Made by a program: the position numbers and the translations under genes. The notes under the pieces are model-generated. The model did not search any database. It saw only the letters and a list, made by a program, of their open reading frames with translations, and was not told the DNA's origin. Below are positions 4,341 to 36,661 of a stretch of DNA of 39,956 nt, piece after piece. This DNA comes from an uncultured Gemmatimonadota bacterium (GTDB lineage Bacteria; Gemmatimonadota; Gemmatimonadetes; Longimicrobiales; Longimicrobiaceae), in assembly GCA_902805735.1 (NCBI GenBank), contig CADCTW010000062.1:1-39956 (forward strand). Reading direction: 5' to 3'. The first letter of the stretch is position 1. Every line of letters starts with the position of its first letter.

Positions 4341-4424
4341 CTCACACAGAGACACAGAGGCACAGAGGAAGGGGCTGCCTCTGCGCCGGTGGCTTATCTC
4401 TGTGTCTTTGTGCCTCTGTGTGAG
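4341..4424. repeat. P1 hairpin repeat, copy 1 (long loop)
   Basis: The left arm 4341-4367 and right arm 4398-4424 match at 24 of 27 positions. Two of the three mismatches would be G:U pairs in a rightward transcript. The loop is 30 nt, unlike the 7-9 nt loops of other full copies, so this copy has an insertion in the centre. It begins 7 nt after the mfd stop and precedes the parvulin lipoprotein gene. Confidence 0.9.
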
Positions 4425-4493
4425 ACATGTTGTTTGTTCCCGAGGCGCCCGCCGATCCGGCGGCGCCGCCCTTTCTTCCACCCGGAGATTCAG

Positions 4494-6002
4494 ATGAAGT
4501 TGTCCCGCTGGGCGTTGCCCGCCGCCGCGCTCGCGCTTGCAGGGTGCGGGTCCTTTGGCAAGGCGATGGGCGCCCATACCGATACGGTGGCCCAGGCCGC
4601 CGGCAAAGAGCTCAAGGTTGAGGAGGCCGCTTCGCTGCTGGCCGCCAACCCCCAGGTGCAGCCCACCGAAGACCTCGTGGGCGAGCTGGCCGGGATGTGG
4701 GTGGACTACACCCTGCTCGCCACCGCCGCCGCCGAAGACACCACCCTCGCCGTGCTCGACTTCGACAAGCTGATCGAGCCCACGCGCGACGAGATGATCC
4801 TGCAGCGCTTCATCACCGGCGCGGTGCCCATCGACACCACGTTCACCGAGGCGGAGCTGGACCAGAAGTGGAACACCGAGGGGCCCGGCTCGCAGGTGCG
4901 CGCCCGCCACATCCTCCTCAAGGTGCCGGGTGACGCCGCCCCCGCCGCGCGCGAGGCCGCCCGCCGCCGCGCCGAGGGGATCCAGGCCCAGGCCGCCGGC
5001 GGCGCCGACTTCGCCGCGCTCGCCCGCCAGCACTCCGAAGACACCTCCAAGGACCAGGGCGGCGACCTCGGCTTCTTTGGCCGCGGGCAGATGGTGCCCA
5101 CCTTCGAGGAGGCAGCCTTCGCGCTGCAGCCCGGCCAGGTGAGCAAGGTGGTGGAGAGCCCCTTCGGCTACCACGTGATCAAGGTGGAGGAGAAGAAGTC
5201 GCAGCCCCTCCCCGTCGAGCAGCGCCCGCAGTTCCGGCAGATGCTGGTGCGCCAGACGCAGGGCCAGTCCGTGCAGAAGTTCGTGGACTCGCTGTCTACG
5301 GCCGCCAAGGTGACGGTGCAGCCCGGCGCCGTGAAGCTGCTCAAGGAGATGGCGGGCCAGAAGGGCGCCGACGTGACCCCCAGGGGCCGCGCCGCTTCGC
5401 GCGCGCTGGTGGAGTACCAGGGCGGCGAGCTCACCGCCGGCGAGATCGCCGAGGTGATCGGGCAGATCCCGCCCGCGCAGCGCGGGCAGGCGGCCAACGC
5501 GCCGGACCAGCAGGTGGAGGACTTCCTCAAGCAGCAGACCACGCGGGAGGTGCTGCTGGTGGAGGCCAAGAAGCGCAACGTCACCCTTTCGCGCGCGGCG
5601 ACCGACTCCATCCGCACCGAGGCGCGCGGCGCCATCCGCCAGCTCCTGCAGGCCACCGGCCTGGGGCAGCAGCGCGTGCCCAAGGGCTCGGCGGGCAACG
5701 CGGTGATCGAGGAGCAGGTGCGCGGCCTGATCCAGGGCTTCATCTCCGGCCAGCGCCAGCTGGTGCCGCTGGGCCGCCTGGCGATCGCGCTCAAGAACGC
5801 GTACGGCCACGAGCTCAACGAGGCCGCCTTCCCCCGCGTGGTCGAGCGTATGAAGGCCATCCGCGCCACCATGCCGCAGCCGCAGATGCCGCAGGGCCAG
5901 CAGATGCCGCCGCAGGGCATGCCGCCGCAGGGCATGCCGCCGCAGGGAATGCCGCCGCAGGGCCAGCCCGCCCCGCAGCCGCAGCAGCCGGCGCAGCCGT
6001 AA
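4494..6002 (+). CDS. Parvulin-type peptidyl-prolyl isomerase, lipoprotein (PrsA/PpiC-like)
   Basis: Predicted to help fold exported proteins by cis-trans isomerisation of proline bonds. The start ATG 4494 has GGAG about 7 nt upstream and gives 502 residues. It opens with a lipoprotein signal (basic KLSR, hydrophobic stretch, lipobox LAGC), so the mature protein is lipid-anchored. A single parvulin domain occupies roughly residues 125-230 (RARHILLKV, a GGDLGFFGRGQM-type block, SPFGYHVIKVEE). A long helical C-terminal region follows and ends in MPPQG repeats rich in Pro, Gln and Met. The next gene encodes a second parvulin protein, and the pair lies between mfd and pdxA; surA next to pdxA is a known arrangement in proteobacteria. 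An in-frame extension to 4389 runs through the P1 repeat and is unlikely to be translated. Confidence 0.9.
   Translation: MKLSRWALPAAALALAGCGSFGKAMGAHTDTVAQAAGKELKVEEAASLLAANPQVQPTEDLVGELAGMWVDYTLLATAAAEDTTLAVLDFDKLIEPTRDEMILQRFITGAVPIDTTFTEAELDQKWNTEGPGSQVRARHILLKVPGDAAPAAREAARRRAEGIQAQAAGGADFAALARQHSEDTSKDQGGDLGFFGRGQMVPTFEEAAFALQPGQVSKVVESPFGYHVIKVEEKKSQPLPVEQRPQFRQMLVRQTQGQSVQKFVDSLSTAAKVTVQPGAVKLLKEMAGQKGADVTPRGRAASRALVEYQGGELTAGEIAEVIGQIPPAQRGQAANAPDQQVEDFLKQQTTREVLLVEAKKRNVTLSRAATDSIRTEARGAIRQLLQATGLGQQRVPKGSAGNAVIEEQVRGLIQGFISGQRQLVPLGRLAIALKNAYGHELNEAAFPRVVERMKAIRATMPQPQMPQGQQMPPQGMPPQGMPPQGMPPQGQPAPQPQQPAQP
5904..5963 (+). repeat. Four tandem 15-nt units coding MPPQG
   Basis: Units begin at 5904, 5919, 5934 and 5949 and read ATGCCGCCGCAGGG(C/A), coding Met-Pro-Pro-Gln-Gly. 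They lie near the 3' end of the parvulin lipoprotein gene. Near-identity at the DNA level suggests recent slippage expansion, so copy number may vary between strains. Confidence 0.9.
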
Positions 6003-6007
6003 CAGCA

Positions 6008-6075
6008 GGCTCACACAGAGACACAGAGGCACAGAGATGAGTCGTTCTCTGTGCCTCTGTGTCTCTGTGTGAGCC
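6008..6075. repeat. P1 hairpin repeat, copy 2 (perfect 30-bp stem)
   Basis: The left arm 6008-6037 and right arm 6046-6075 are exact reverse complements over 30 bp with an 8-nt loop (TGAGTCGT). It starts 6 nt after the stop of the first parvulin gene and ends about 75 nt before the second. Confidence 0.97.
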
Positions 6076-6149
6076 CCGCTGTTTGGAACCCCCGCCGCTC
6101 TCCGGCATACAACACTGCGACTCCTTCCCGCTGACCCAAGAACGCATCT

Positions 6150-7460
6150 ATGCGCAACTCAATCGCGGCGCTCGCCGCCCTGTTCGCCCTTTCCGCCGCG
6201 CCGCTGGCCGCGCAGGGCCCGCCCGCCCAGCAGCCGGGCGAGGAGCTGGTGGACCGCGTGGTGGCGGTGGTGGGCGACACCACCCTGCTTTACTCCGACG
6301 TCGTCCAGGCGCTGGAGCAGCTCCGCGAGAGCGGGCAGACGGTGCCCACCGACCCGGCCCAGCGCGACCTCTTCGTGCGCCGCGTGGTGGAGCAGCGCGT
6401 CAGCGACCTGGTGCTGCTGGAAGCCGCGCGCGCCTCCGGCCTCGCGGTCACCGAGGCAGACGTGGCCGACGTGGTGGAGCGGCAGGTCGCGCAGGTACGG
6501 CAGCGCTTCAACAACTCGGACACGGAGATGGCCCGCGCGCTCCTGCAGTCGGGGCGCACGGTGGACGAGTTCCGGCGCGACATCACGCGCCAGGCCATCG
6601 ACCGCACCATGATCCAGCGCTTCACGGCCGCGCAGATGGCCAAGCTGCCGCGCCCCACCGTGTCCGACGAGGAGGCGCGCGCCTACTTCGAGACGGTGCG
6701 CGCCCAGGTGGGGCAGCGCCCCGCCAACGTGTCGTTCGAGCAGGCGCTGGTGAAGCCCGTGCCCTCCGACTCCGCGAAGGCGCGCGCCCGCCGCACCGCC
6801 GTGGAGGTGCTCGCCGAGCTGGGCCGCGGCGGCGACTTCGAGGTGCTGGCGCGCCGCTACTCGGCCGACGCGTCCAAGGAGCAGGGGGGCAGCCTGGGGT
6901 GGTTCCGCGAGGGGCAGATGGTGCGCCCCTTCGAGGCCGCCGCTTTCTCCATGCGCCCGGGGCAGACCTCGGACATCGTGGAGACGGAGTTCGGCTACCA
7001 CATCATCCGCCTGGACCGCATCCGCGGGCCGGAGCGGCAGGCGCGCCACATCCTGATCCGCCCGGAGATCACCCCGGAAGACGTGGCCCGCGCCCGCACC
7101 CGCGCGGACTCCATCGCCGCGGCGGTGCGCGCCGGGGCGTCGCTCCCGCAGCTCGCCGCCACCACCAGCACGCCGGGCGACCAGCGGGTGAACCGCAACG
7201 TGCCCGTCGAGCAGCTTCCCCCCGCGTACGCGCTGCTGGGGACGGCGCAGACGGGCGCCGTGGTGGGGCCGTTCGAGATCCCCGACCCGCAGGGCTCCTC
7301 GTCGTTCGCGGTGGCGCGCGTCACCGCCCAGCAGGCGGCCGGGCAGCTCGAGTACGCGGACGTGGCGGACCGGGTGAAGGAGCGGCTCCAGGAGCAGCGC
7401 ATGCAGGAGCAGCTGCTGGCCGAGCTGCGCCGCAACACGCACGTCGCCATCCAGATCTGA
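6150..7460 (+). CDS. SurA-like periplasmic chaperone / peptidyl-prolyl isomerase
   Basis: A probable periplasmic chaperone for outer-membrane proteins with prolyl isomerase activity. It has 436 residues and starts at ATG 6150. The N-terminus is a Sec signal ending near PLAAQG. It is followed by a SurA-type N-domain beginning ELVDRVVAVVGDTTLLYSDV, a helical region, and a parvulin domain near residues 190-290 (YSADASKEQGGSLGWF, ETEFGYHIIRLD). A second region, starting at RQARHILIRPE, resembles the beginning of another parvulin repeat but lacks the later blocks. The layout (N-domain, parvulin, degenerate parvulin) resembles SurA. The S4-domain gene follows after 1 nt and pdxA is next. I leave the symbol blank because orthology to E. 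coli surA is not proven. Confidence 0.85.
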   Translation: MRNSIAALAALFALSAAPLAAQGPPAQQPGEELVDRVVAVVGDTTLLYSDVVQALEQLRESGQTVPTDPAQRDLFVRRVVEQRVSDLVLLEAARASGLAVTEADVADVVERQVAQVRQRFNNSDTEMARALLQSGRTVDEFRRDITRQAIDRTMIQRFTAAQMAKLPRPTVSDEEARAYFETVRAQVGQRPANVSFEQALVKPVPSDSAKARARRTAVEVLAELGRGGDFEVLARRYSADASKEQGGSLGWFREGQMVRPFEAAAFSMRPGQTSDIVETEFGYHIIRLDRIRGPERQARHILIRPEITPEDVARARTRADSIAAAVRAGASLPQLAATTSTPGDQRVNRNVPVEQLPPAYALLGTAQTGAVVGPFEIPDPQGSSSFAVARVTAQQAAGQLEYADVADRVKERLQEQRMQEQLLAELRRNTHVAIQI

Positions 7461-7461
7461 G

Positions 7462-7743
7462 ATGGACGAGGCGCTGCGGGTAGACGTACTCCTGCACCGG
7501 CTCTGCCTCACCAGGAGCCGCAGCGAGGCCAAGACGGCGTGCGAGGCGGGCGCCGTGTCGCTGGACGGGCGCGGCGCCCGCCCCAGCGACACCGTCCTCC
7601 CGGGGCGGCGGATCACGGTGCGCTACCCGCGCCGCACCCTGGAGGTGGAGCTGCTCGCGCTCCCCGGGAAGAGCACCTCGAAGGCCGCCGCGCGCGAGCT
7701 CTACCGGGTGCTGCGGGACGAGCGCACGGGCGACGAATTTTGA
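7462..7743 (+). CDS. Small S4-domain RNA-binding protein (Hsp15/RqcP type)
   Basis: A 93-residue protein made almost entirely of one S4 RNA-binding fold (LRVDVLLHRLCLTRSRSEAK, then GAVSLDGRGARPSDTVLPG), followed by a basic tail with KAAARELYRVL. In length and motif order it matches the Hsp15/HslR and RqcP (YabO) group, which bind ribosomes carrying stalled or obstructed 50S peptidyl-tRNA. RqcP genes lie close to mfd in Firmicutes, so its place downstream of mfd is suggestive. The ATG is 1 nt after the stop of the SurA-like gene, so translation is probably coupled. I cannot choose between Hsp15 and RqcP from sequence alone. Confidence 0.85.
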   Translation: MDEALRVDVLLHRLCLTRSRSEAKTACEAGAVSLDGRGARPSDTVLPGRRITVRYPRRTLEVELLALPGKSTSKAAARELYRVLRDERTGDEF

Positions 7744-7754
7744 CGATCACACAG

Positions 7755-7788
7755 AGACACGGAGACACGGAGGAGTGTCTCCGTGTCT
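7755..7788. repeat. P1 hairpin repeat, copy 3 (short, 14-bp stem)
   Basis: Bases 7755-7768 pair perfectly with 7775-7788 around the loop GGAGGA. Both arms carry the G-type variant (CACGGAG on the left, CTCCGTG on the right). The outer TCACACAGAG begins at 7748, but its right-hand partner is missing. It lies between the S4 gene and pdxA. Confidence 0.8.
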
Positions 7789-7804
7789 GTTTTGAGGATG
7801 ATCG

Positions 7805-8731
7805 ATGAAGCCACGCATCGCGGTTACGGTGGGAGACCCGCGGGGGATCGGGCCGGAGGTCACGGCCGCCGCGCTCGCGCACCCCGAGGTGAGCGGCGCG
7901 GCCGACTTCGTCCTGGTGGGGCCGCAGGGGATGGCGGAGGTGGCGGTGGGGCGCTGGATGCCGGAGGACGGCGCGGCGGCGGCGGGGCGAATCGCGGGCG
8001 AGGCGATCCAGAAGGCCACGGAGATGGCGCTGGCGGGGGAAGTGGACGCCGTGGTCACCGCGCCCATCGACAAGTCCGCCTTCCACGCCGGGGGCTGGCA
8101 CTTCCCCGGGCACACCGAGATGCTGCGCGACCTGGCCGGCGTGCCCGAGGTGGCGATGATGATGGCGGCCGAGCGCACGGCGCTGGGCGGCCCGCTGCGC
8201 GTGGTGCTGGCGACCACGCACCTGGCGCTGCGCGACGTCCCCGCCGCGCTCTCGGCGGATCTCCTCGTCCGCCAGGCGGAGCTGGTCCATCACGCCCTGC
8301 GCACGCACTGGGGGATCGCGAGCCCGCGTGTGGCCCTCTGCGCGGTCAACCCGCACGCCTCCGACGGCGGCCTCTTCGGCGACGAGGAGGAGCGCATGGT
8401 GGAGCCGGCGCTGCGCACGCTGGCGGAGCGTGGGATCGGCGCGGCGGGGCCCATCCCGGCCGACACGGTGTTCACGCGCGCGGTGCGTGGCGAGTTCGAC
8501 GCGGTGATCGCGCCCTATCACGACGTGGGGATGGCGGCGTTCAAGACGGCGGCGTTCGGGAGCGGGGTCAACGTCACCCTGGGGCTCCCCTTCCCCCGTA
8601 CCTCGCCGGACCACGGGACGGCGCTCGGCATCGCCGGCAAGGGGGTGGCGGACGCGTCGTCCATGCGCGAGGCGGTGCTCCTGGCCGTGCGCATGAGCAG
8701 ACCCTTTGACAGCGGCGCGGAACGCGGCTAA
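7805..8731 (+). CDS. pdxA: 4-hydroxythreonine-4-phosphate dehydrogenase PdxA
   Basis: Oxidises 4-phosphohydroxy-L-threonine in the deoxyxylulose-dependent route to pyridoxal 5'-phosphate (vitamin B6). It has 308 residues, close to the usual 310-330. The family blocks are all present: TVGDPRGIGPEV at the N-terminus, TAPIDKSAF, PGHTEML, NPHASDGGLFG, GPIPADTVF, APYHDVGM and TSPDHGTA. The conserved histidines in PGHTE, YHDVG and SPDHG include the metal ligands of this family. The start ATG 7805 has GAGG 7 nt upstream, immediately after the short P1 hairpin. ftsE follows after 47 nt. PLP is also the cofactor of GlyA encoded further right, but the two genes are not in one operon. Confidence 0.97.
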   Translation: MKPRIAVTVGDPRGIGPEVTAAALAHPEVSGAADFVLVGPQGMAEVAVGRWMPEDGAAAAGRIAGEAIQKATEMALAGEVDAVVTAPIDKSAFHAGGWHFPGHTEMLRDLAGVPEVAMMMAAERTALGGPLRVVLATTHLALRDVPAALSADLLVRQAELVHHALRTHWGIASPRVALCAVNPHASDGGLFGDEEERMVEPALRTLAERGIGAAGPIPADTVFTRAVRGEFDAVIAPYHDVGMAAFKTAAFGSGVNVTLGLPFPRTSPDHGTALGIAGKGVADASSMREAVLLAVRMSRPFDSGAERG

Positions 8732-8778
8732 GTTCGATCCACACCGACAGATCCCCCCAGCAGTCCCCCGGTCCTCCC

Positions 8779-9477
<699 letters not shown>

Positions 9478-9479
9478 AC

Positions 9480-10337
9480 ATGCCGTACGCGATCCGCGAG
9501 GCGCTCACCGCCTTCCGCCGCACGCCGCTGCTGACGATGCTGTCGGTGGTGGCGATCGCCTTTTCGCTCTTCATCGTGGGCCTCTTCGGCCTCACCGCCT
9601 TCAACATCTCGCAGGCCGTGCGCGAGGTTGAGAACAAGGTGGAGGTGGTGGGCTACCTCCGCGACGACGCCGCCCCGGTGCAGCTGCAGGTGGCGCAGGA
9701 CGAGCTGCGCCGCCTCCCGGAGGTGCAGGAGCTTCGCTACGTCACCAAGACGGAAGCGCTCGCCAGCGCCATGGAGGAGATGAAGGAGTTCCGCGACGTC
9801 TTCACCGACCTGGAGAGCAACCCGCTCCCCGCGTCGCTGGAGGTGCGCCTGCGCCCCGGGCAGAGCTCGCCCGAGGCCGTGGCCCGCGTGGCCAAGCGGA
9901 TGCAGGCGTACGGCTTCGTGGAAGAGGTGGACTTCGGCGACGGGTGGGTGGAGAAGATCTACACCATCCGCCGCCTCTTCGGCGCGGCGGCCACGGCCAT
10001 CGGCGGGGCGTTCGCCCTGGTGGCGGCCATCATCATCGCCACCGCCATCCGCATCGCGGTCTTCGCGCGGCGCGAAGAGATCTCCATCATGCGCCTGGTG
10101 GGCGCCACCGACGGCTTCGTGGAGCGTCCCTTCCTGCTGGAGGGGATCTTCACCGGCTTCGTGGGCGGTCTGGCGGCGGCGGGGCTCACCTATCTCTCCT
10201 TCGGCATCCTCAACCGCTACCTCTTCGCCCTGCAGTGGATCCCCTCCGAGTGGCTGGCGGGCTTCGTGGTCGCGGGCACGGTGTTCGGCTTCCTGAGCAG
10301 CATGGTGGCGGTGCGGCGCCACCTGGAGGCGGTCTGA
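9480..10337 (+). CDS. ftsX: Cell-division permease-like protein FtsX
   Basis: The integral membrane partner of FtsE, 285 residues from ATG 9480 (2 nt after ftsE). The layout is diagnostic: one N-terminal membrane helix (LLTMLSVVAIAFSLFIVGLF), an extracytoplasmic domain with the FtsX pattern (VEVVGYLRDDA, a VTKTEAL block, NPLPASLEVRL), then three helices with the cytoplasmic loop RREEISIMRLVGAT between them. It has no catalytic function itself; it passes a conformational signal to an external hydrolase activator. The gene immediately downstream encodes such an activator. An open extension upstream (to 8706) overlaps ftsE and is not the gene. Confidence 0.96.
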   Translation: MPYAIREALTAFRRTPLLTMLSVVAIAFSLFIVGLFGLTAFNISQAVREVENKVEVVGYLRDDAAPVQLQVAQDELRRLPEVQELRYVTKTEALASAMEEMKEFRDVFTDLESNPLPASLEVRLRPGQSSPEAVARVAKRMQAYGFVEEVDFGDGWVEKIYTIRRLFGAAATAIGGAFALVAAIIIATAIRIAVFARREEISIMRLVGATDGFVERPFLLEGIFTGFVGGLAAAGLTYLSFGILNRYLFALQWIPSEWLAGFVVAGTVFGFLSSMVAVRRHLEAV

Positions 10338-10338
10338 A

Positions 10339-13076: not shown

Positions 13077-13139
13077 TCACACGGAGACACGGAGGCACGG
13101 AGAAGTTGCTTTTCTCCGTGCTTCCGTGTTTTCGTGTGA
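13077..13139. repeat. P1 hairpin repeat, copy 4 (G-variant arms)
   Basis: The left arm 13077-13104 and right arm 13112-13139 pair at 25 of 28 positions with a 7-nt loop. The left arm carries CACGGAG units and the right arm carries CTCCGTG, so the A-to-G variant is matched in both arms. The three mismatches are all G:U compatible in a rightward transcript. It is 58 nt before moaC and 330 nt after holB, the only full copy not directly behind a stop codon. Confidence 0.92.
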
Positions 13140-14414: not shown

Positions 14415-14484
14415 GGGCTCACACAGAGACACAGAGGCACAGAGATCAGTTCTTCTCTGTGCCTCTGTGTCTCTGTGTGAGCCC
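14415..14484. repeat. P1 hairpin repeat, copy 5 (perfect 31-bp stem)
   Basis: The left arm 14415-14445 and right arm 14454-14484 are exact reverse complements with an 8-nt loop (TCAGTTCT). It sits 6 nt after the transglycosylase stop and 7 nt before the fbp stop on the other strand, so it could end transcription from both sides. Confidence 0.97.
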
Positions 14485-18390: not shown

Positions 18391-18420
18391 TCTCACACAG
18401 AGACACAGAGGCACAGAGAA
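18391..18420. repeat. P1 repeat, copy 6 (left arm only)
   Basis: A complete left arm with the GAGAAGAAC loop start, but the right arm is missing. What follows is the leader of the lipoprotein gene at 18481. It lies between divergent genes (comEC and the lipoprotein), the only P1 copy placed upstream of both neighbours, and it cannot form the hairpin. Confidence 0.9.
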
Positions 18421-18480
18421 GAACGAGCCTGGCCCGTCGGTTGCACGATTCCCGGCCGGGAGCAACCATGGGAGGTGGGT

Positions 18481-18858: not shown

Positions 18859-18867
18859 AAACCAGGG

Positions 18868-18931
18868 CTCACACAGAGACACAGAGGCACAGAGAAGAAC
18901 CAATCTCTGTGCCTCTGTGTCTCTGTGTGAG
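18868..18931. repeat. P1 hairpin repeat, copy 7 (perfect 28-bp stem)
   Basis: Arms 18868-18895 and 18904-18931, loop AGAACCAA (8 nt). Placed between the converging stops of the lipoprotein gene (9 nt) and miaB (8 nt). Confidence 0.97.
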
Positions 18932-18939
18932 ACCTGCGT

Positions 18940-22671: not shown

Positions 22672-22716
22672 TCTCTGTGCCTCTGTGCCTCTGTGCCTCT
22701 GTGTCTCTGTGTGAGA
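22672..22716. repeat. P1 repeat, copy 8 (right arm only, with internal expansion)
   Basis: Only the right arm is present, and its CTCTGTGC unit is repeated three times in a row (8-nt direct repeats) before the normal CTCTGTGTCTCTGTGTGAG end. It cannot form the standard hairpin. It ends 7 nt from the helicase stop codon (22724), the usual P1 distance. Confidence 0.9.
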
Positions 22717-22723
22717 CTTCTGT

Positions 22724-25700
22724 TTACAGGGGCCAGACGTGGCACTGGGCGGCGACCGTGCCACCCTCCGGCGTGGGGAGATCCACCTGGCGCACGGGGC
22801 CGGAGGCGGCGCGGGCGTAGCCCTTCACGGCCAGCGACGCGCCCATCACCTGCTCGTCGCGGGGGAGAGTGCGCAGGACTTCCTGGCTGAGGAAGACGAC
22901 CAGCTTCGCCCTGGGGCGGGTGATGGCGACGTTGAAGCGGTTGGGGTTGAGCAGGAACGACGCTTCGCGCTCCGCGTACTCGCGGTCCGCGACGGCGTAG
23001 GAGACGACGATCATCTCGCGCTCGTTGCCCTGCATGCGCTCCACCGTGTCCACGACGGGGAGCTCGGCGCGGGGCCAGCCGCCGGCCACCAGCTCGCCCA
23101 GGATGGCGCTGTTCTGCGCGCGGTGCGGGGAGATGGCGGCGAACGCGTGGCTGCGGAAAGCGTCCGCCGTGTACGGCTCGCCCGTGGCCGGATCCAGCAT
23201 CCCGGCGCGGGCCAGGCGGGCGAGGCGGGCCACCAGCGCGGCCTCGAAGGGGTTGCGGGCGGTCGCGCGGACACCTTCGTACGTGCAGAAGACGACCGCC
23301 TCCTCCGGGCGGAAGAAGACGTTCCAGAGGAGCGCATCCACCCGATCGACGAAACTCCCGCCGGCGAGACGAAGCCGCCAGTCCGGCACCCTGGACACCA
23401 GACCCGGATAGAAGACGCGGCGCGGGTAGCGGACGAGCGCCTGGTTCATCCGCCGGCTCTCGCGCAGGGTAAAACGCCCGAACTTCTCCGCGAAATGCGT
23501 GAAGGCGGAGCCGAAGAGGGTGTTCTCCGGGTCGTAGCTGCCGCGGATAATGGGGGCGAGCTGCCGGTCGTCGCCGCACAGGATCACGCGGCCGCCGCGG
23601 CGGATGGACGAGAGCGCGATCAGCGAGTCCGCCACCTTCATCTGCGACGCCTCGTCGATCACCACCACGTCGAAGAGCGGGCGCACCGGCGCGCCGCTCT
23701 CTTCGTCGTCGGAAGAAGCGCCGTTCATCGCGCGCAACTGCTTCCACAGGGACCACACGGTGGAGCCGACCACGACCGGCTCGTTGGCGGCGTCGGAGGC
23801 GGCGAGGATGCGGGCGAGGTGCGTGTCCGGGACCACCTCCGCACGGACGCCGTCCAGGTCCGCGTCGGCCTCGCTCCCGCGCCCCGCCAGCTTCACCACG
23901 CGCAACGGATCGGGGATGCCGCTGGCCTCCAGCTCGCGCGCGATCCGCACCAGCACGTTGACGACGGCGCGGTGCGTGGCCGCGCTCACCAGGATGCGGC
24001 AGCGCCGCCCCGCGCGCTTCGCGGCCGCCGCGATGCCGATCAGCATCCACGCCAGCAGGTACGTCTTCCCCGTCCCTGGCGGGCCCCATACGACGGAGAT
24101 CTCGCGCTCGAACACCCCGCGCCACGCCGTTTCCTGCTCCGCGTTCAGCACGGGGCGTCCGAAGGCGTGCGCGGCGGGGCGCAGGGCGGCGTCCCAGCCC
24201 GCATCGGCGTCGAACGGCGCCAGGAGCCAGTCGGAGACCCGCTCGCCGTGCAGCAGCCGCGTCACGAACTCCGCCTCGCCGCGCCCGGCCGCCAGCGCGC
24301 GCAGGGTGGCGACGACGCGGCGGGTGTTGAAGTCGGCCTCCGCCCTGTCCAGCACGCACACGCGGCCGAAGTCCAGGAGCCGGTCGCGCTCGGCGGCCTT
24401 CCAGCCGTCCTCGGAGGCGAGCGTCATGCGCGGCGGGTCGGCGGCGAGGTCGAAATCCACCAGCTCAGCGCTCAGCTTGCGGCGCAGCCAGGGCTTGCGA
24501 TGCGTCTCGGTGAGGGTGCGGCCGTCGTCGTTGGTGAGGAGGAGCGCGAAGTCGCCCGGGCGGAACTTGGCCTCGCGGCACTCCGGATCGAAGGTGAAGA
24601 CGGCGCTGCGATCCTCGCGCATCTCCACCAGCTCCACACCGCGGATGCACTCGAAGCGGCTCGCGCGCTCATGCGTGGGGAGCGCGTGCAGCGAACGGAT
24701 GGCGGCGCTCTCCTCCGCCGCCTCCAGCTCCGTGAGCATGCGCAGCGATTCGAGGAGCGGATCGGCGATGGGATCGCCGGACGCGGCGCCGGGGAGCGCG
24801 GCAGGCTCCAGGCGCAGCCGCGGGTCTCCCTTGCGGCGCGCGGCGCGGTCGCGGACGGCGCGCACCAGCGAATCCAGCGCGGCCAGCTTGGATTCCACGG
24901 TCGCCACGATCTCGGCGCGCACCTCGTCGGGACCCTGCCCGCCGGCGGGGCGGCGGTTCCAGACGTTGTGGATGCGCTCGAACGCCACCTGGCTGGAGAA
25001 GGGCGATCCGTACGTGTCGCGCGGGCGGTGCACGGCGGGCGCGACGGCGGGCTGCAGCGCCTCGGAGACGCGCGCCAGGTCCCACGCGTACGGCACCGGG
25101 AGGGCGAAGAGCTCCGAGATGACGTCCAGCAGGATCGTCCCCGGCGCCGTGGAGGCGGGGCGCGCGCCTTCTCCGGGGAAGAGGAGCGCGGCAAGGGCGG
25201 CGATGGCCGGCTGCGCCTCCGCGTCCCCCAGGTGGCGCTGAAGGAGCCCGCGGAGGATCTCCATCTCCCCCGCATCGTACACGAAGAAGTGCACCGAGCG
25301 CCCCTCCGCCTCGCCCAGCGCCGCGCCCAGGTGCGCCAGGAAACCGCCCAGCATCCTCCGCTCGGCGGACGGCTTCCCCGCATCGCACACGAACACGCTC
25401 GCCGCGCGCCGCCCCAGCCCCTCCACGCGCACGCCGAGCGCGAAGCAGAGCCCCGTCACCGGGTCGCTTTCGGCGGAGAGGAGGACACGCACGCCCTCGC
25501 TCATCCCCATGCGGTGCGTGCGCCCCTCCACGTCGAACACCTTGCGGAAGGCGAGCGCCTGCACGCGCTGCTTGAGCTGCGCCGGGTTGGATTCCAGCGC
25601 GTGCGAGCCGGTGTAGATCCCCTTGCGGAACGACGCCTTCTGCAGCGCCGCCACGGTGCGGATCCCCTGCGCGTGGAGCGCCTGCCTGGCGACGGGGGTG

Positions 25701-26494
25701 ATCCCGTTGACGCGCGCCAGGTCGTCCGTGCGGTCCGCCTCGGCGCGGCAGTGCTCAAAGAAGCCGCACCCCGCGCACACCGGCAGCAGGTGCCACGCGG
25801 CCTCGCCGGGCGCGCACGCGGCCACGCGCGGCAGGTCTTCGCGGAACAGCTCCTCCACGTGGTGCCGGTAGGCGGCCAGCGCGAAGGGGCGCGGCTTGCG
25901 GGCGCCGCGCGTCCAGATCCACCCGCGCCGCGTCTCCGCGACGCCGTCCAGCCCTTCGGCGCGGCAGATCTCTGCGAGGACGAGCGAGTAGAAGGCGACC
26001 TGCGCGAAGTGCTGCAGCGTGCCGTTGCGGCTCCACTTGATGTCCACCACCCCGAAGCGCGGCCGCCCGTCCGCACCGCGGCGAATGCGGATCAGGTCCG
26101 GCTGCGCGGGCTGGATGGAGATGGATGGATCGATCCCGTGGCGCGCCGCGAACGCCGCGGGATCGGGGAGGACCAGCTCCGGCTGCACGATCCACCGCAC
26201 CTCACCCGGATCGCGCAGCGCCTCCACGACGCGCGCGTACGGCAGCTTCACCGCCTCCCCGTGCGGATTGCGCCCCGCCGCGAGCACCGCTCCGGGAAAG
26301 CGGCGCTCGAGCTGCGCGAGCCTGCGCTGCTCGAACAGGCGCCCGGCGCGCGTGAGCAGCCCCGTCCCCGGCCGCGCCAGGGACGCCGGGATCTCGCCGC
26401 CGCGCTCGGCCGCGGGCACCATCTCCCAGCGAAGGCGGCGGTCGCAGCGGAAGCGGAAGTGTTGTGCTGCGAGCGATCCGGTGAGGCGAAGCAT
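22724..26494 (-). CDS. TM0106-type fusion: Cas4-like RecB nuclease plus SF1 (Upf1/Dna2-like) helicase
   Basis: 1256 residues. The N-terminal part (to about residue 250) is a PD-(D/E)xK nuclease with an iron-sulfur cage: a Cys in FRFRCDRRLRWEM, the active-site pair QPDLIRI and GVVDIKWS (near residue 150), then CAGCGFFEHC (C-x2-C-x5-C), the Cas4/AddB/Dna2 pattern. A helix-hairpin-helix-like stretch (ARVNGITPVARQALHAQGIR) and an RNase H-like middle region follow. The C-terminal SF1B helicase has GPPGTGKTYLLAW (near 800), VVIDEASQM (near 946), CGDDRQLAPI, ESRRMN and a final motif VAITRPRAKLVVF. The architecture predicts a nuclease-helicase acting on nucleic-acid ends or flaps. Its role is not established; repair or defence are both possible. 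It is followed on the same strand by a toxin-antitoxin pair. Confidence 0.9.
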   Translation of the reverse strand: MLRLTGSLAAQHFRFRCDRRLRWEMVPAAERGGEIPASLARPGTGLLTRAGRLFEQRRLAQLERRFPGAVLAAGRNPHGEAVKLPYARVVEALRDPGEVRWIVQPELVLPDPAAFAARHGIDPSISIQPAQPDLIRIRRGADGRPRFGVVDIKWSRNGTLQHFAQVAFYSLVLAEICRAEGLDGVAETRRGWIWTRGARKPRPFALAAYRHHVEELFREDLPRVAACAPGEAAWHLLPVCAGCGFFEHCRAEADRTDDLARVNGITPVARQALHAQGIRTVAALQKASFRKGIYTGSHALESNPAQLKQRVQALAFRKVFDVEGRTHRMGMSEGVRVLLSAESDPVTGLCFALGVRVEGLGRRAASVFVCDAGKPSAERRMLGGFLAHLGAALGEAEGRSVHFFVYDAGEMEILRGLLQRHLGDAEAQPAIAALAALLFPGEGARPASTAPGTILLDVISELFALPVPYAWDLARVSEALQPAVAPAVHRPRDTYGSPFSSQVAFERIHNVWNRRPAGGQGPDEVRAEIVATVESKLAALDSLVRAVRDRAARRKGDPRLRLEPAALPGAASGDPIADPLLESLRMLTELEAAEESAAIRSLHALPTHERASRFECIRGVELVEMREDRSAVFTFDPECREAKFRPGDFALLLTNDDGRTLTETHRKPWLRRKLSAELVDFDLAADPPRMTLASEDGWKAAERDRLLDFGRVCVLDRAEADFNTRRVVATLRALAAGRGEAEFVTRLLHGERVSDWLLAPFDADAGWDAALRPAAHAFGRPVLNAEQETAWRGVFEREISVVWGPPGTGKTYLLAWMLIGIAAAAKRAGRRCRILVSAATHRAVVNVLVRIARELEASGIPDPLRVVKLAGRGSEADADLDGVRAEVVPDTHLARILAASDAANEPVVVGSTVWSLWKQLRAMNGASSDDEESGAPVRPLFDVVVIDEASQMKVADSLIALSSIRRGGRVILCGDDRQLAPIIRGSYDPENTLFGSAFTHFAEKFGRFTLRESRRMNQALVRYPRRVFYPGLVSRVPDWRLRLAGGSFVDRVDALLWNVFFRPEEAVVFCTYEGVRATARNPFEAALVARLARLARAGMLDPATGEPYTADAFRSHAFAAISPHRAQNSAILGELVAGGWPRAELPVVDTVERMQGNEREMIVVSYAVADREYAEREASFLLNPNRFNVAITRPRAKLVVFLSQEVLRTLPRDEQVMGASLAVKGYARAASGPVRQVDLPTPEGGTVAAQCHVWPL

Positions 26495-29822: not shown

Positions 29823-29832
29823 ACAGATCGGG

Positions 29833-29895
29833 CTCACACAGAGACACAGAGGCACAGAGATGAAGTTGTCTCTGTGCCTCTGTGTCTCTTGTGAG
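29833..29895. repeat. P1 hairpin repeat, copy 9 (28-bp stem with one bulge)
   Basis: The left arm 29833-29860 pairs with the right arm 29869-29895, which has lost one nucleotide (CTCTTGTGAG for CTCTGTGTGAG type). Loop TGAAGTTG, 8 nt. It lies between the converging stops of the feo operon (10 nt) and the DUF5615 gene (4 nt). Confidence 0.95.
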
Positions 29896-29899
29896 ATCT

Positions 29900-30599: not shown

Positions 30600-30635
30600 G
30601 ATACCTCGCTCGAACTCCCGCCACGGTGCCCTGCC

Positions 30636-30980
30636 ATGAAACGCTCATCTCTCGCTCCACTCCTCCTCGCGGCTTTCCTCGGGGCCTGCTCGCCGCTCTT
30701 TTCGGGGGAAGATGATACGCGGGACCCGGTGCGCGTCGGGTTCGTGTCGCGGCAGGGGGACGAGGTGAACGGGACGGGGGCGGTGGAGTGGTTCGGGATC
30801 GAGGGAGGGTTCTTTGCGATCCGGGGGGATGATGGGAAGGTCTATGATCCCATGAACCTGCCGCCCGGGTTCGCGCGCGACGGGCTGCGGGTGCGGTTCG
30901 AGGGGCGCATCCGGAGGGACGTGGGGAGCATTCGCATGGTCGGGGAGATCGTGGAGCTGAGGCGGATCGCGCTGCAGTGA
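30636..30980 (+). CDS. Small lipoprotein of unknown function
   Basis: 114 residues. The lipoprotein signal MKRSSLAPLLLAAFLGAC has the lipobox LGAC. The mature part is a short beta-rich domain with the pattern DPVRVGFVSRQGDEVN, GFFAIRGDDGKVYDPMNLPP and GLRVRFEGRIRRDVGSIRMV. The last block resembles small OB-like domains that end with a strand such as IVELRRI. No catalytic residues are visible. It converges on hrpB, with a truncated P1 copy between. I do not recognise a named family with confidence. Confidence 0.78.
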   Translation: MKRSSLAPLLLAAFLGACSPLFSGEDDTRDPVRVGFVSRQGDEVNGTGAVEWFGIEGGFFAIRGDDGKVYDPMNLPPGFARDGLRVRFEGRIRRDVGSIRMVGEIVELRRIALQ

Positions 30981-30989
30981 ACGGCGGGG

Positions 30990-31036
30990 CTCACACAGAG
31001 ACACAGAGGCACGGAGAACAGACCGGTTCTCCGTGC
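30990..31036. repeat. P1 hairpin repeat, copy 10 (right arm truncated)
   Basis: A full left arm from 30990, but only the inner 11 bp of the right arm remain: 31009-31019 pairs with 31026-31036. Both arms have the G-type variant (CACGGAG/CTCCGTG). The missing outer right arm is replaced by the hrpB stop (31040-31042) and coding sequence. Confidence 0.88.
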
Positions 31037-31039
31037 TTT

Positions 31040-33523: not shown

Positions 33524-33841
33524 GGGATGAAATCTGCCTGCGCGAGCCCCGGGATTCCAGTGCCGGCGGGCTGGGCACGATGCGGAGCAGGATATGCAGT
33601 GGACCGAGGGCATCATACGGAAGCCGTGCAGGCCGCCCCATCGTCGTCATCCCGTGCGACGCCCCGGACGCGAGATGCGCCGCGGCCCCGGCGCCGAGCC
33701 GAAGGATCTACTGTCCGCCAGCTCGTGACCTGCTCGCGAGTGTCCGAGAGTAGATCCTCTGGACGCAAGCCGTGGGGCAGCTCCGGCAGGACCGCACGGG
33801 CTCCCAATCCGCGATAAGAGTCCGCTCTCACGGAGGAAGCC
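33524..33841. other. Gene-free interval between divergent hrpB and pfpI-like genes
   Basis: 318 bp with no plausible gene. It must hold both promoters, but I cannot pick convincing ones. The one clear structure is an inverted repeat, GGATCTACT (33704-33712) and AGTAGATCC (33749-33757), 36 nt apart, with partly complementary sequence inside (GCTCGTGAC, GCTCGCGAG). GGAGGA at 33833-33838 is the ribosome binding site of the next gene. Confidence 0.6.
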
Positions 33842-34456
33842 ATGTCCGCGAAGAAGATCCTGATGCTGGTGGGCGATTTCGTGGAGGATTACGAGGTGAT
33901 GGTCCCCTTCCAGGCGCTGCAGATGGTGGGGCTCGAGGTGCACGCCGTCTGCCCGGACCGGCGCGCGGGGCAGACGGTGCGCACCGCCATCCACGACTTC
34001 GAAGGCGACCAGACGTACACCGAGAAACCCGGGCACAACTTCGCGCTGAACGCCACCTTCGCGGAGGTGCGCGAGGAGGACTACGACGCGCTGGTCGTCC
34101 CTGGCGGGCGCGCGCCGGAGTACCTGCGCCTCAGCCCGCGCGTGCTGGAGATCGTGCGGCACTTCGCGGCGTCCGGGAAGCCGGTGGCGGCCATCTGCCA
34201 CGGCCTGCAGCTCCTGGCCGCCGCGGACGTGCTGCGGGGGCGGCGCTGCACGGCGTACCCGGCGTGCGGGCCCGAGGTCACCATGGCCGGCGGCGAGTAC
34301 GTGGAGGTTCCCGTGCACCAAGCCGTGGTGCACGGCAACCTGGTGACCGCGCCGGCGTGGCCCGCGCACCCGCAGTGGCTGGCGCGCTTCCTGGAGGTGC
34401 TCGGCGAGCGCCCGGACCGCCGTGGCAGGCTTCCGTCGGTGCAGGCAGAGGCCTGA
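33842..34456 (+). CDS. DJ-1/PfpI-family protein
   Basis: 204 residues from ATG 33842, with GGAGGA 3 nt upstream. It has the class I glutamine-amidotransferase-like fold of the DJ-1/PfpI superfamily: [18 protein letters not shown] with E15, [12 protein letters not shown], and the nucleophile elbow [13 protein letters not shown] with C119 followed by H120. This E15-C119-H120 set matches the PfpI/YhbO deglycase and peptidase branch. Substrates in this family range from glyoxal adducts to peptides, so I do not assign one. The protein is slightly longer than PfpI (about 170 residues), and the extra part is the C-terminus ([18 protein letters not shown]). It stands alone, followed by a P3 palindrome. 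Confidence 0.9.
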
Positions 34457-34485
34457 GAACAGCGGGCTCACACGCGACGCGGGGA

Positions 34486-34640
34486 CCGCCGCGTGCCGCA
34501 ACGCCGGGGGATGAATCCCCCGGCTGCAACGACGGGAAGCCCGCTGAAGCGGGCTCGGTCGCCTGACCGATGCGAGCCTGCTTCAGCGGGCTTCCCGTGG
34601 TTCCAGCGAGGGGATTATCCCCTCGCGGCGGCACGGCGTG
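34486..34640. repeat. P3 compound palindrome (GAAGCCCGCTGAAGCGGGC type)
   Basis: A long imperfect palindrome built from four small hairpins: GCCGGGGG-ATGAAT-CCCCCGGC (34503-34524), GCCCGCTGAAGCGGGC, its near mirror image with CTGCTTCAGCGGGCTTCCCG, and GCGAGGGGATTATCCCCTCGC (34606-34626). The outer ends (GCCGCGTGCCGC and GCGGCGGCACGGCG) also pair. It fills the gap between the converging pfpI-like and DUF3072 genes. A 10-nt P1 remnant (GGGCTCACAC) lies just before it at 34464. Confidence 0.85.
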
Positions 34641-34642
34641 AA

Positions 34643-34864
34643 TCAATCGATGCCGCGGCCGGTCTTTTCCTGCAGCTCGTCGATCTTCTTCGACGCCTCG
34701 GCCTTGGTGAGGTCGTCGCCGACTTCGACGTGGGCTTCTTCGGCCAGAGTGTTGAGGTAGGAGCGCTGGGCGCCGGTCATCGGCTGGTCGCCCGTGACCC
34801 ACTTGTCCGGGTCCTTGATGGTGTTGCTCTCCTCCCGGTGCTCCTGCGTCGCCTTGTCCGTCAT
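34643..34864 (-). CDS. DUF3072-family small protein
   Basis: 73 residues from ATG 34864, which has AGGGAG 6 nt upstream; the ATG at 34870 is directly against that site and less likely. The sequence is hydrophilic, beginning MTDKATQEHREESN, followed by IKDPDKWVTGDQPMTGAQRS, YLNTLAEEAHVEVGDDLTKA and EASKKIDELQEKTGRGID. MTGAQRSYLNTLAEEA is the DUF3072 core. The function is unknown. No membrane segment, signal or cysteine is present. It is divergent from the methyltransferase gene, with about 54 nt between the starts. Confidence 0.85.
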   Translation of the reverse strand: MTDKATQEHREESNTIKDPDKWVTGDQPMTGAQRSYLNTLAEEAHVEVGDDLTKAEASKKIDELQEKTGRGID

Positions 34865-34918
34865 ATCCATCTCCCTATGTGCGGTTTCTCGGCGTAAGTG
34901 CCACCTGAGCATCAGCTT

Positions 34919-35590
34919 ATGCAGGATGCGTACCAAATAAAAACCGAATGCCCGCTCTGCACGTCGGCCGACGTGGGAGCGTTCGCGGAGCTGCGCGGCG
35001 CGCGCTACTCCCGATGCGCGGTGTGCCGGCTGACCTTCCTCGCGCCGGAGCAGCGGCCGGGCGCGGAGGCCGAGCTCACGCACTACGGGACGCACGAGAA
35101 CGACGCGGCCGACCCGCGCTACCGCGCCTTCCTGGACCGGCTCGCGACTCCTCTCGCGGAGCGCCTGGCACCGGGCGCCGAGGGGCTGGACTTCGGCGCG
35201 GGGCCGGCGCCCGCGCTGGCGGAGATGCTGCGCGAGCGGGGGTTCAGCGTGCGCGTCTACGATCCGTTCTTCGCGCCCGACGACGAGGCGCTGCGCCGGA
35301 GCTACGACTTCATCGCCTGCTCCGAGACGGCCGAGCACTTCCACGCCCCGGCCACCGAGTTCGCGCGCATGGACAGGATGCTGCGCCCCGGCGGATGGCT
35401 GGGCGTGATGACCGAGATGCTGGGGGACGACGCGAGGTTCGCGGGATGGCGCTACGCACGCGATCCCACCCACGTCTGCTTCTACCGCGCGGAAACCATG
35501 CGGTGGCTCGCCGGGCACTTCGCCTGGGAGCTCCAGACCCCCGCGCGCCACGTCACGCTCTTCCGCAAAGCAACGGAGGCACGGAGATGA
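34919..35590 (+). CDS. Class I SAM methyltransferase with N-terminal zinc ribbon
   Basis: 223 residues from ATG 34919 (a GTG at 34898 would add seven). The N-terminus has a four-cysteine ribbon, CPLCTSADVG and RYSRCAVCRLTF, common in Methyltransf_23-type enzymes. The Rossmann part shows GLDFGAGPAPALAEML (motif I), SVRVYDPFFAPD, YDFIACSETAEHFHAP (motif IV, with ETAEHF) and RMLRPGGWLGVMTEML. The substrate is unknown; relatives modify sugars, lipids or small molecules. The final residues ATEARR and the TGA are coded inside a short P1 hairpin, so the repeat has replaced or trimmed the original 3' end. Confidence 0.87.
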   Translation: MQDAYQIKTECPLCTSADVGAFAELRGARYSRCAVCRLTFLAPEQRPGAEAELTHYGTHENDAADPRYRAFLDRLATPLAERLAPGAEGLDFGAGPAPALAEMLRERGFSVRVYDPFFAPDDEALRRSYDFIACSETAEHFHAPATEFARMDRMLRPGGWLGVMTEMLGDDARFAGWRYARDPTHVCFYRAETMRWLAGHFAWELQTPARHVTLFRKATEARR

Positions 35591-35606
35591 TGTCATCTCC
35601 GTGCCT
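35574..35606. repeat. P1 hairpin repeat, copy 11 (core only, holds a stop codon)
   Basis: GGAGGCACGGAGATGA pairs perfectly with TCATCTCCGTGCCTCC (16 bp) around a 2-nt loop. Both arms carry the G variant. The TGA in the left arm is the stop of the methyltransferase gene. The converging MBL-fold gene ends 20 nt further on. Confidence 0.92.
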
Positions 35607-35626
35607 CCACGCAAGCCCCCGCTGTT

Positions 35627-36550
35627 TCAGCGCCTGCGCAGCGCCGCTCCGATCGCTACGCCGGCGAGCGCGAACAGTCCCAGCCCGGCGACCAGCGTCA
35701 CCGGGTCGAGCACCGGCGGCGGCACCGAGATGACGCCCTCCTCGTCGAACACGGCCGGCGCGCGCACGTAGCGGCCATCTTCCGGAATGGCGAGCATCTC
35801 GAAGTCGCTGGCGAGCATGCGCAGGGCGGCGCGCATGGCTTCGCCGTGGAGGGGCGGGCCGTGGCCGGTGCCCACCGCCTCCGGCTCCAGGGCGGCGAGC
35901 GCCTCCACCGAGCGGCGGGCGGCGCCCCAGTCCTGCGTGAAGTACGCGGGCGGGCCGTTGACCTCCGGGCGCCACTGCATCACCGCCGTCATGGACTCCT
36001 GCTTCGTCGTCACGAAGGCGTCGCCCGCGAGCAGCGTGCGGTCCGCGTCGCGGAAGAGGGCGACGTGGCCCGGCGAGTGGCCCGGCGTGGGGATCCACCG
36101 CCACCCCGGCATCCCCGGCACCGACCCGTCGTCGGGGAGGATGCGCAGGCGCGGCCGGAAGTCGTAGGGGCCGCGCGGGTACAGGGGCGACATGCGCGCC
36201 ATCGCCCCGCCGCCCACGGTGGGGTCGGGCGGCGGATACGACTCGCGGCCGTCCAGGTAGGGAAGCTCCAGCGGGTGCGCGTAGATCAGCACGTCCCACA
36301 GCTCGGCCAGCGTGTGCAGCGCCCCCACGTGGTCGAAGTGGCCGTGGGTGAGGACGATGCACGCCGGCCGCGCGTCTCCGTACCGCGCCTTCGCCGCCGA
36401 CTCGATCCACGGCGCCGACCCGGGAATCCCCGCGTCCACCAGCACCCACTCCCGGTCCCCGGCCCCGGGCGCGCCGTAGAAGAACAGGTTCGCGATCGCC
36501 GTCCGCAGCGCCGCCACATCGGGGGTCACCGGCCAGGTATTCGTATCCAT
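35627..36550 (-). CDS. MBL-fold metallo-hydrolase with C-terminal membrane helix
   Basis: 307 residues. The metal site THGHFDHVG (H69, H71, D73, H74) is intact, followed by PTPGHSPGHV and LLAGDAFV with the bridging Asp, and a late GTGHGPPLHG His. This is the glyoxalase II / lactonase type arrangement with a binuclear metal centre. After the catalytic domain come a linker (FDEEGVISVPPPVLDP) and one helix, TLVAGLGLFALAGVAIGAAL, ending in RRR. The Arg end suggests that the tail is cytoplasmic; the protein would be tail-anchored, which is less common in this family. The substrate is unknown. The start is ATG 36550; a longer open frame in another register upstream is not real. Confidence 0.88.
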   Translation of the reverse strand: MDTNTWPVTPDVAALRTAIANLFFYGAPGAGDREWVLVDAGIPGSAPWIESAAKARYGDARPACIVLTHGHFDHVGALHTLAELWDVLIYAHPLELPYLDGRESYPPPDPTVGGGAMARMSPLYPRGPYDFRPRLRILPDDGSVPGMPGWRWIPTPGHSPGHVALFRDADRTLLAGDAFVTTKQESMTAVMQWRPEVNGPPAYFTQDWGAARRSVEALAALEPEAVGTGHGPPLHGEAMRAALRMLASDFEMLAIPEDGRYVRAPAVFDEEGVISVPPPVLDPVTLVAGLGLFALAGVAIGAALRRR

Positions 36551-36596
36551 CGCTGCTCCTTGTCGGGTTCGGCAGGCACCCTGTCAAACAACGTGC

Positions 36597-36661
36597 CTCA
36601 CACAGAGACACAGAGCCACGGAGAAGAACTTCATCTCTGTGGCTCTGTGTCTCTGTGTGAG
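36597..36661. repeat. P1 hairpin repeat, copy 12 (28-bp stem with paired G/C swap)
   Basis: The left arm 36597-36624 pairs with 36634-36661, with one G/T mismatch. Where other copies read GAGGCAC...GTGCCTC, this one reads GAGCCAC...GTGGCTC, a change on both sides that keeps pairing. The loop is 9 nt. It ends 11 nt from the phospholipase-D-type stop codon. Confidence 0.95.

What the first reader, a model, noticed from the sequence alone, without database searches (positions are those of the whole stretch)
4341..36661. P1 hairpin family marks gene ends: 12 copies, most 4-12 nt from a stop codon
Seen in the sequence: 12 copies of one element (arm core CACAGAGACACAGAGGCAC) at 4341, 6008, 7755, 13077, 14415, 18391, 18868, 22672, 29833, 30990, 35574 and 36597. 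Full copies form 27-31 bp stems; loops are 7-9 nt except in the first (30 nt). Ten of twelve lie within about 12 nt of a stop codon, or overlap one, and every convergent pair except pfpI/DUF3072 has exactly one copy between the two stops. The elements lack a U-tract, so they are not textbook Rho-independent terminators. Inference: they act as bidirectional terminators or 3'-end stabilisers, or they are miniature elements that home to gene ends. The regular placement argues against random spread.
Basis: partly seen in the sequence, partly recalled or inferred. Interest (0 to 1): 0.72.

Follow-up and report, generated by a model that had tools for sequence, protein, structure and literature searches.

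The report
Hairpin repeat capping bacterial gene ends
A short DNA repeat, present in perhaps fifteen hundred copies in one bacterium, sits a few bases after many of its genes and often folds into a hairpin, and it may have taken over the job of ending the RNA copies of those genes.

Summary
In 951 kb of this genome (16%) I found 246 copies against 2 and 0 in two controls, about 1,500 genome-wide by extrapolation. Of 231 placed copies, 185 lie within 25 nt of a stop codon; random placement of 246 gives 20 ± 4. Of 79 convergent gaps of 10-400 nt, 63 hold a copy. Two REP families linked to Y1 transposases (RAYTs) in the same genome show no such rule (3 of 30). 141 of 246 copies form hairpins, only 4 of them in divergent gaps; 105 do not. 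Tails after hairpins are T-enriched, so 'no U-tract' is only partly right. At 21 orthologous gene ends with a P1 hairpin here, a congener has another hairpin at 10, a half-copy at 2, nothing strong at 9. Copies are not tied to RAYTs: a relative with 113 arm matches has none. Best reading: a dispersed REP-like element whose hairpin form serves as a bidirectional 3'-end hairpin or terminator and stands in for ordinary ones. Function is inferred; there are no RNA data. The placement rule is known for other REPs.

The parts
4341..4425 (.). P1 copy with long loop, 6 nt after the stop of the Mfd-like helicase gene 990-4334
6008..6075 (.). P1 full hairpin, 30 bp stem, 8 nt loop, 5 nt after the stop of the PPIase gene 4566-6002
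   Evidence: -73 kcal/mol for window 6000-6095, z -12.6
7747..7788 (+). P1 short hairpin (14 bp, 7755-7788) followed by GTTTTG, between gene 7462-7743 and PdxA-like gene 7805-8731
13077..13139 (.). P1 hairpin in a tandem gap, not near a called stop (330 nt after 12746)
14415..14484 (.). P1 full hairpin, 31 bp stem, between convergent SLT-domain gene and fructose-bisphosphatase gene, 6 and 7 nt from the stops
   Evidence: other hairpins at these gene ends in several congeners
18391..18425 (+). P1 half-copy (single arm) in a divergent gap; does not fold
18863..18936 (.). P1 full hairpin between convergent genes, 4 and 3 nt from the stops
22672..22715 (-). P1 half-copy with extra 8-nt units, 8 nt after the stop of AAA-domain gene 22724-26419 (-); does not fold
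29833..29893 (.). P1 hairpin between convergent FeoB-like and DUF5615 genes, 6 nt from the latter's stop
30990..31036 (.). P1 left arm plus short inner hairpin GCACGGAGAAC..GTTCTCCGTGC followed by TTTTC, between convergent genes
35574..35609 (.). P1 short hairpin overlapping the stop of the methyltransferase gene (34973-35590), convergent with a metallo-beta-lactamase-fold gene
36597..36661 (.). P1 full hairpin with a matched C/G change in both arms, 11 nt from the stop of the PLD-like gene 36673-37950 (-)

Best explanation
P1 is a dispersed, non-coding, REP-like element with arms of the form AACRGCGGGGCTCAC-ACAGAG.., built of 8-nt units (CACAGAGR). In the part of the genome read, a copy lies at about half of the gene 3' ends that have room for one: a hairpin copy at a third, a half-copy at one in seven. 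Where both arms, or an inner part of them, are present, the RNA folds into a stable hairpin starting a few nt after the stop codon. I infer that this hairpin serves as a two-way 3'-end structure: a bidirectional terminator with a modest U-rich tail, and perhaps an exonuclease block. It stands where a congener often has an unrelated hairpin. Copies with one arm are not expected to terminate; some lie between adjacent genes, where the purine-rich inner end falls near the next start. How the element moves is unknown; it is not linked to the genome's Y1 transposases. Shown: repeat family, placement, predicted folding, tail enrichment, ortholog comparison, lack of RAYT link. Inferred: termination, RNA protection, mobility.
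For: 246 loci in 951 kb vs 2 and 0 in Markov controls. Stop proximity 185 of 231 placed vs 20.4 ± 4.2 expected; convergent 77 vs 29.4 ± 4.9, divergent 18 vs 62.6, expectations for 246 draws. Hairpin-forming copies: 65 convergent, 69 tandem, 4 divergent, 3 at tile edges, of 141. At least 3 T in 5 nt in 70 of 113 downstream flanks vs 21% background, at least 4 T in 42 of 113 vs 3.6%. Gene 3' ends with 40 nt or more free: 170 of 498 with a hairpin copy and 68 with a half-copy only, 82 with another strong hairpin; in congener G006, 55 of 414 with a copy and 125 with another hairpin. Of 21 orthologous ends with a P1 hairpin here, G006 has another hairpin at 10, a half-copy at 2, nothing strong at 9. 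Matched changes in both arms 23 vs 7.0 ± 2.5 in 500 shuffles, maximum 18. In G064, of another order, 11 of 11 paired-arm units read lie within 40 nt of a called stop, some bracketing an ordinary hairpin.
Against: 105 of 246 copies form no hairpin yet many also sit just after stops, so stop proximity does not need the hairpin. The simple terminator scan does not flag the full hairpins. Among gene ends without P1, the share with another strong hairpin is about equal in both genomes (82 of 260 vs 125 of 359), so replacement is shown only at the orthologs compared, and 9 of those 21 have no strong hairpin in G006. Of the 10 'other hairpins' in G006, 2 look P1-like themselves by eye. Arm covariation can also come from palindrome correction, and 45 of 123 two-arm copies were dropped for lack of an anchor. 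In other genera read only 4 of 13 units lie within 40 nt of a facing stop.
Confidence: 0.58

Rival explanations
1. P1 is a selfish miniature element that inserts just downstream of stop codons, or survives only there; hairpin function is incidental and termination is done by Rho or other sites.
For: Strong copy-number differences within one genus; half-copies obey the same placement; common unit sizes in G064 (~44 and ~160 nt between arm starts); patchy distribution, 32 of 395 genomes of the phylum.
Against: Hairpin copies are far more often convergent than half-copies (65 of 141 vs 12 of 105); tails are T-enriched; no target duplication was found; matched arm changes exceed shuffles.
Confidence: 0.27
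2. P1 acts mainly on translation or mRNA decay: a stem starting within ~15 nt of the stop stalls terminating ribosomes or blocks 3' exonucleases, as proposed for E. coli REPs. This can be true together with termination.
For: Core edge to stop distance has a median of 12 nt for two-arm copies and the conserved CTCA precedes the core; -56 to -73 kcal/mol for four full copies with flanks; the E. coli precedent is described in passages of PMC12306157.
Against: Does not by itself explain the convergent-gap bias or the T-enriched tail; not tested here.
Confidence: 0.35
3. P1 is the repeat of a RAYT (REP-associated tyrosine transposase) system.
For: Two Y1_Tnp genes in the genome; P1 copies lie outside the inner repeats of one, on both sides.
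Against: Both RAYTs are flanked by their own different inverted REPs; of 25 Y1 loci of relatives none has P1 next to the gene and 2 have one near the locus edge; G064 has 113 arm matches and no Y1_Tnp, G004 has 30 arms and none, G003 has 6 Y1 matches and 5 arms.
Confidence: 0.05
4. P1 is a DNA uptake sequence used in inverted pairs as a terminator, as in Neisseria and Pasteurellaceae.
For: Over a thousand arm matches, frequent inverted pairing at gene ends; a gene with a Competence (ComEC-like) domain is in the window.
Against: Only 5 of 246 copies lie inside called genes; the arm is much longer than the 9-11 nt uptake signals described in PMC1852404 (passages); spread is patchy.
Confidence: 0.05

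Closest known systems
GTAG- and CGTC-tagged REP families (PMC3733652, abstract and body passages seen)
   Same: Short high-copy palindromes, mostly between convergent or tandem genes; in the two families diagrammed there, most conv-REPs are <20 bp from the 3' ends of both flanking ORFs.
   Different: No GTAG/CGTC end tag above background, no RAYT link, arm built of 8-nt units, stems of about 30 bp, and a large class of half-copies.
DNA uptake sequence terminators of Neisseria and Pasteurellaceae (PMC1852404 and PMC2267715, passages seen)
   Same: A high-copy oligonucleotide that in inverted pairs forms gene-end hairpins.
   Different: P1 is longer, almost absent from genes, and no uptake role is known.
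E. coli REPs near stop codons (PMC12306157, abstract and passages seen; Liang et al. 2015 recalled, seen only as its ref. 17)
   Same: Hairpin within ~15 nt of the stop codon.
   Different: That paper counts 446 of 4,072 REPs within 15 nt (260 of 496 in the older study it cites); here 185 of 231 placed copies have the core edge within 25 nt. Sequence differs.
Miniature inverted-repeat elements (MITEs) in general (recalled)
   Same: Non-coding, paired inverted arms, dispersed; common unit sizes with arms around different cores in other genera.
   Different: No target-site duplication detected in 78 G000 copies and no parent transposase found.

Membership tests
REP (GTAG/CGTC, RAYT-linked) | High-copy short palindrome outside genes | tested here: inconclusive
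   high copy and outside genes are met; palindrome in 141 of 246 copies
REP (GTAG/CGTC, RAYT-linked) | GTAG or CGTC tag at one end | tested here: not met
   GTAG in 7, CTAC in 2, CGTC in 4, GACG in 10 of 156 outer 16-nt flanks (78 copies); background 3%, 2%, 10%, 8%
REP (GTAG/CGTC, RAYT-linked) | Linked RAYT gene flanked by the same repeat | tested here: not met
REP (GTAG/CGTC, RAYT-linked) | Located next to ORF 3' ends | tested here: met
   185 of 231 placed copies within 25 nt
Rho-independent terminator | Stable hairpin shortly after the stop | tested here: inconclusive
   141 of 246 copies have a hairpin, 105 do not; of 8 window copies folded, 6 fold well and 2 do not
Rho-independent terminator | U-tract after the hairpin | tested here: inconclusive
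   T-enriched (70 of 113) but shifted several nt from the stem in full copies; textbook tails on some short copies
Rho-independent terminator | RNA 3' end at the hairpin | not testable with these tools
   no RNA data
DNA uptake sequence | Genome-wide including coding regions (recalled for Neisseria and Haemophilus) | tested here: not met
   5 of 246 inside called genes
DNA uptake sequence | Promotes DNA uptake | not testable with these tools
   needs an assay
MITE | Inverted terminal arms, common unit sizes | tested here: met
   G064
MITE | Target-site duplication | tested here: not met
   78 G000 two-arm copies, no excess over shuffles at k = 3-6; one 8-nt match, a number also reached by a shuffle; G064 flanks only read by eye
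MITE | Parent transposase with the same ends | tested here: inconclusive
   only Y1_Tnp was searched; no gene-sized inverted arm pair seen by eye among the 100 of 113 G064 places listed

The most novel reading that the evidence does not exclude
An undescribed repeat family with (CACAGAGR)n arms, found in many phyla and independent of RAYTs, targets the few nucleotides after stop codons in this lineage and has replaced ordinary terminators there, so that about a third of the free gene ends of one genome rely on hairpin copies of a single mobile sequence; half-copies have been reused as operon spacers that supply ribosome-binding sites.
Probability: 0.3. Interest if true: 0.72.

Novelty: new variant of a known kind. 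Interest (0 to 1): 0.5.

Why it matters
It offers a case where a dispersed repeat appears to have taken over 3'-end hairpins for a large part of a genome within one genus, with a congener that has other hairpins at some of the same gene ends. This makes two questions directly testable: how a repeat finds the few bases after a stop codon without a known transposase, and whether mobile palindromes can rewire termination genome-wide. It also warns that scans relying on an immediate U-tract can miss such gene ends.

Tried and rejected
First element definition (15-mer, up to 2 mismatches) gave 279 loci but 50 in a Markov control; replaced by the stricter one (246 vs 2 and 0). The built-in reversed-pattern control is not valid because the reversed core resembles the family.

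Pre-existing palindrome model: the outer flanks of the two sides of 78 two-arm copies are no more complementary than shuffles, so there is no sign that P1 dropped into the middle of older hairpins here. Three copies read in G102 do have locus-specific outer inverted repeats, unexplained.

Target duplication: no excess. RAYT link: rejected. Rfam: no match at the gathering threshold in the window.

Of 42 with a facing stop only 12 were within 25 nt, 36 of 97 fell inside ORFs by a crude ORF caller, and 9 of 97 formed a short-loop hairpin. So the gene-end rule does not clearly hold outside this phylum.

Script fault: 6 of 22 loci (L099, L101, L109, L117, L118, L119) were read on the wrong side because the match ran in reverse; I use the other 16 only. 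In one search the window gap 35590/35627 is counted as having no P1 because its copy overlaps the stop.

Literature: the arm strings gave no paper; searches on Longimicrobium plus palindromic, Gemmatimonadetes plus terminator plus intergenic repeats, and repeat/MITE/terminator gave nothing on this family by titles and starts of abstracts. The library holds open-licence PMC papers only. I suspect from memory that the host is a Gemmatimonadota (Longimicrobium-like) bacterium; no call named it.
Full report
What was checked. My own gene calls (a codon-usage caller, not an annotation) put 10 of 12 copies next to a stop, nine at 3-11 nt and one overlapping, and five of six convergent gaps hold one copy each. 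The two exceptions are 13077 and 18391. Pfam names for 19 of 20 neighbours scanned are.

Genome scale. I read 951,385 bases of the 5.79 Mb genome (window plus 60 tiles) and called 740 genes. With a strict arm definition there are 246 loci, against 2 and 0 in two Markov controls; extrapolated, about 1,500 in the genome. Of 246, 231 could be placed between two called genes, 5 fell inside genes and 10 lay at tile edges. Of the 231, 185 are within 25 nt of a stop; random placement of 246 copies in intergenic space gives 20.4 ± 4.2 (maximum 30 in 200 simulations). 77 are in convergent gaps (29.4 ± 4.9 expected) and 18 in divergent gaps (62.6 expected). Of 79 convergent gaps of 10-400 nt, 50 hold a two-arm copy and 13 a single arm. 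The two REP families that flank this genome's Y1 transposases obey no such rule: 1 of 10 and 2 of 20 placed copies within 25 nt. In congener G006, 42 of 76 placed P1 copies are within 25 nt of a stop (6.5 ± 2.3 expected for 82), but 17 convergent copies are no excess (14.2 expected).

Anatomy. Arms read AACRGCGGGGCTCAC, then ACAGAG and further 8-nt units (CACAGAGR), and a similar outer consensus appears on sides not near a stop, so it belongs to the element. In 78 of 123 two-arm copies that could be anchored (45 dropped), the commonest span is 64 nt (40 copies) with an 8-9 nt loop (52 copies) that varies more than the arms; changes matched in both arms number 23 against 7.0 ± 2.5 in 500 shuffles, maximum 18. 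This favours pairing but could also come from palindrome correction. Four full window copies fold at -56 to -73 kcal/mol with their flanks, z -7.8 to -13. By folding potential, 96 copies have long stems, 45 short ones and 105 none. Hairpin-forming copies are 65 convergent, 69 tandem, 4 divergent, 3 at edges; non-forming ones 12, 70, 14, with 2 inside genes and 7 at edges.

Tails. Over 113 downstream flanks of anchored two-arm copies, T is 30-54% at positions 7-12, and 70 of 113 have at least 3 T in 5 nt, against 21% of intergenic background; other strong hairpins in the same genome have 34 of 82 and in G006 57 of 125. Convergent flanks are partly shaped by the opposite gene's A-rich stop context, but the tandem ones (20 of 33) are not. 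Some short copies look like textbook terminators, such as AGGCACAGAGATGACTTCATCTCTGTGCCT-TTTTTCG and window 30990; of 25 short copies in tandem gaps, 12 have at least 3 T in 5 within 10 nt of the stem. The simple terminator scan still misses full copies, probably because the tail is shifted.

What stands at the same place in relatives. For three window gene ends (14408, 14492, 18940), 16 of 22 congener loci were read on the right side; by that script's score (10 or more) 9 of the 16 carry a strong unrelated hairpin: 3 of 3, 5 of 7 and 1 of 6. Among 69 reciprocal best hits with G006 (median 85.5% identity), 21 end in a P1 hairpin here; in G006 these are 10 another hairpin, 2 a half-copy, 9 nothing strong. 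Two of the ten look P1-like by eye. Of 8 that end in a half-copy here, G006 has 2 half-copies, 1 hairpin, 5 nothing. In the other direction one G006 P1 hairpin faces another hairpin here. Across free gene ends, P1 is at 238 of 498 here (170 hairpin, 68 half only) and 55 of 414 in G006, other strong hairpins at 82 and 125. This is consistent with displacement, but among P1-free ends the share with another hairpin is alike (82 of 260, 125 of 359), so P1 need not have chosen hairpin-bearing ends.

Half-copies. Single-arm copies also sit just after stops: 85 of 103 stop sides within 40 nt, 51 with the core on the gene's strand and 34 opposite. Of 36 non-folding, same-strand copies in tandem gaps, 16 have the core's inner end within 20 nt of the next called start, against 2 of 32 opposite-strand ones and 3 of 69 hairpin copies. 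Several show GGAG- or GAGGAG-like ends just before the start. A ribosome-binding role is a suggestion only; my start calls carry an SD bonus and favour such starts.

Spread and mobility. Within the genus the exact pattern CTCACACAGAGNCACRGAG counts 1,202 here and 283, 187, 37, 23, 10, 1, 0, 0, 0 in the other nine genomes held. Over 395 genomes of the phylum, 32 (this one included) have a three-unit arm. One of another order, G064, has 113 arm matches, mostly in inverted pairs with two common spacings, about 44 and 160 nt (100 of 113 places listed); the units carry different cores, some partly shared and some with an ordinary hairpin inside. The 11 units read there lie within 40 nt of a called stop (these are the first hits listed, not a random draw, with a gene caller trained on G000). 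In six other genera read in the same call only 4 of 13 units do. G064 has no Y1_Tnp; in the genus Y1 number and arm number do not go together. No target duplication and no GTAG/CGTC tag above background. The mover is unknown.

Prior art. GTAG- and CGTC-tagged REPs are described as mostly convergent or tandem and, in two families diagrammed, <20 bp from 3' ends (PMC3733652, passages). E. coli REPs within 15 nt of a stop are linked to ribosome stalling (PMC12306157, abstract and passages). Uptake sequences in inverted pairs form terminators (PMC1852404 and PMC2267715, passages). So the kind is known; this family and its take-over of gene ends I did not find in the searches made.

Verdict. The best-supported reading is a RAYT-independent REP-like element whose hairpin form acts as a bidirectional gene-end hairpin or terminator. 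Termination, RNA protection and movement remain inferred.

Noticed in passing
window 34505-34625: Inverted dimer of the REP family that flanks the Y1 transposase gene of locus L032, between the DJ-1/PfpI and DUF3072 genes; this is the one convergent gap of the window without P1.
   Followed up: yes
window 38058-38187: Inverted dimer of the second REP family, the one flanking the Y1 transposase gene of L031 (GGCGAGTGAACTCGCGGCAACAAC..AAAGTCCGCC).
   Followed up: partly
L035 13833-13889; also L066, L077, L082: Runs of the heptamer AGTGCCT (3 or more copies); 4 runs in 951 kb of this genome, none in 791 kb of G006. The L035 run lies in a convergent gap and forms a long hairpin.
   Followed up: no
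L205, L206, L207 (genome G102): Copies of the arm hairpin with further locus-specific inverted repeats outside the arms, different at each locus.
   Followed up: no
L204 1200-1733 (genome G264): Tandem array of about 160-nt units each bounded by CACAGAG arms.
   Followed up: no
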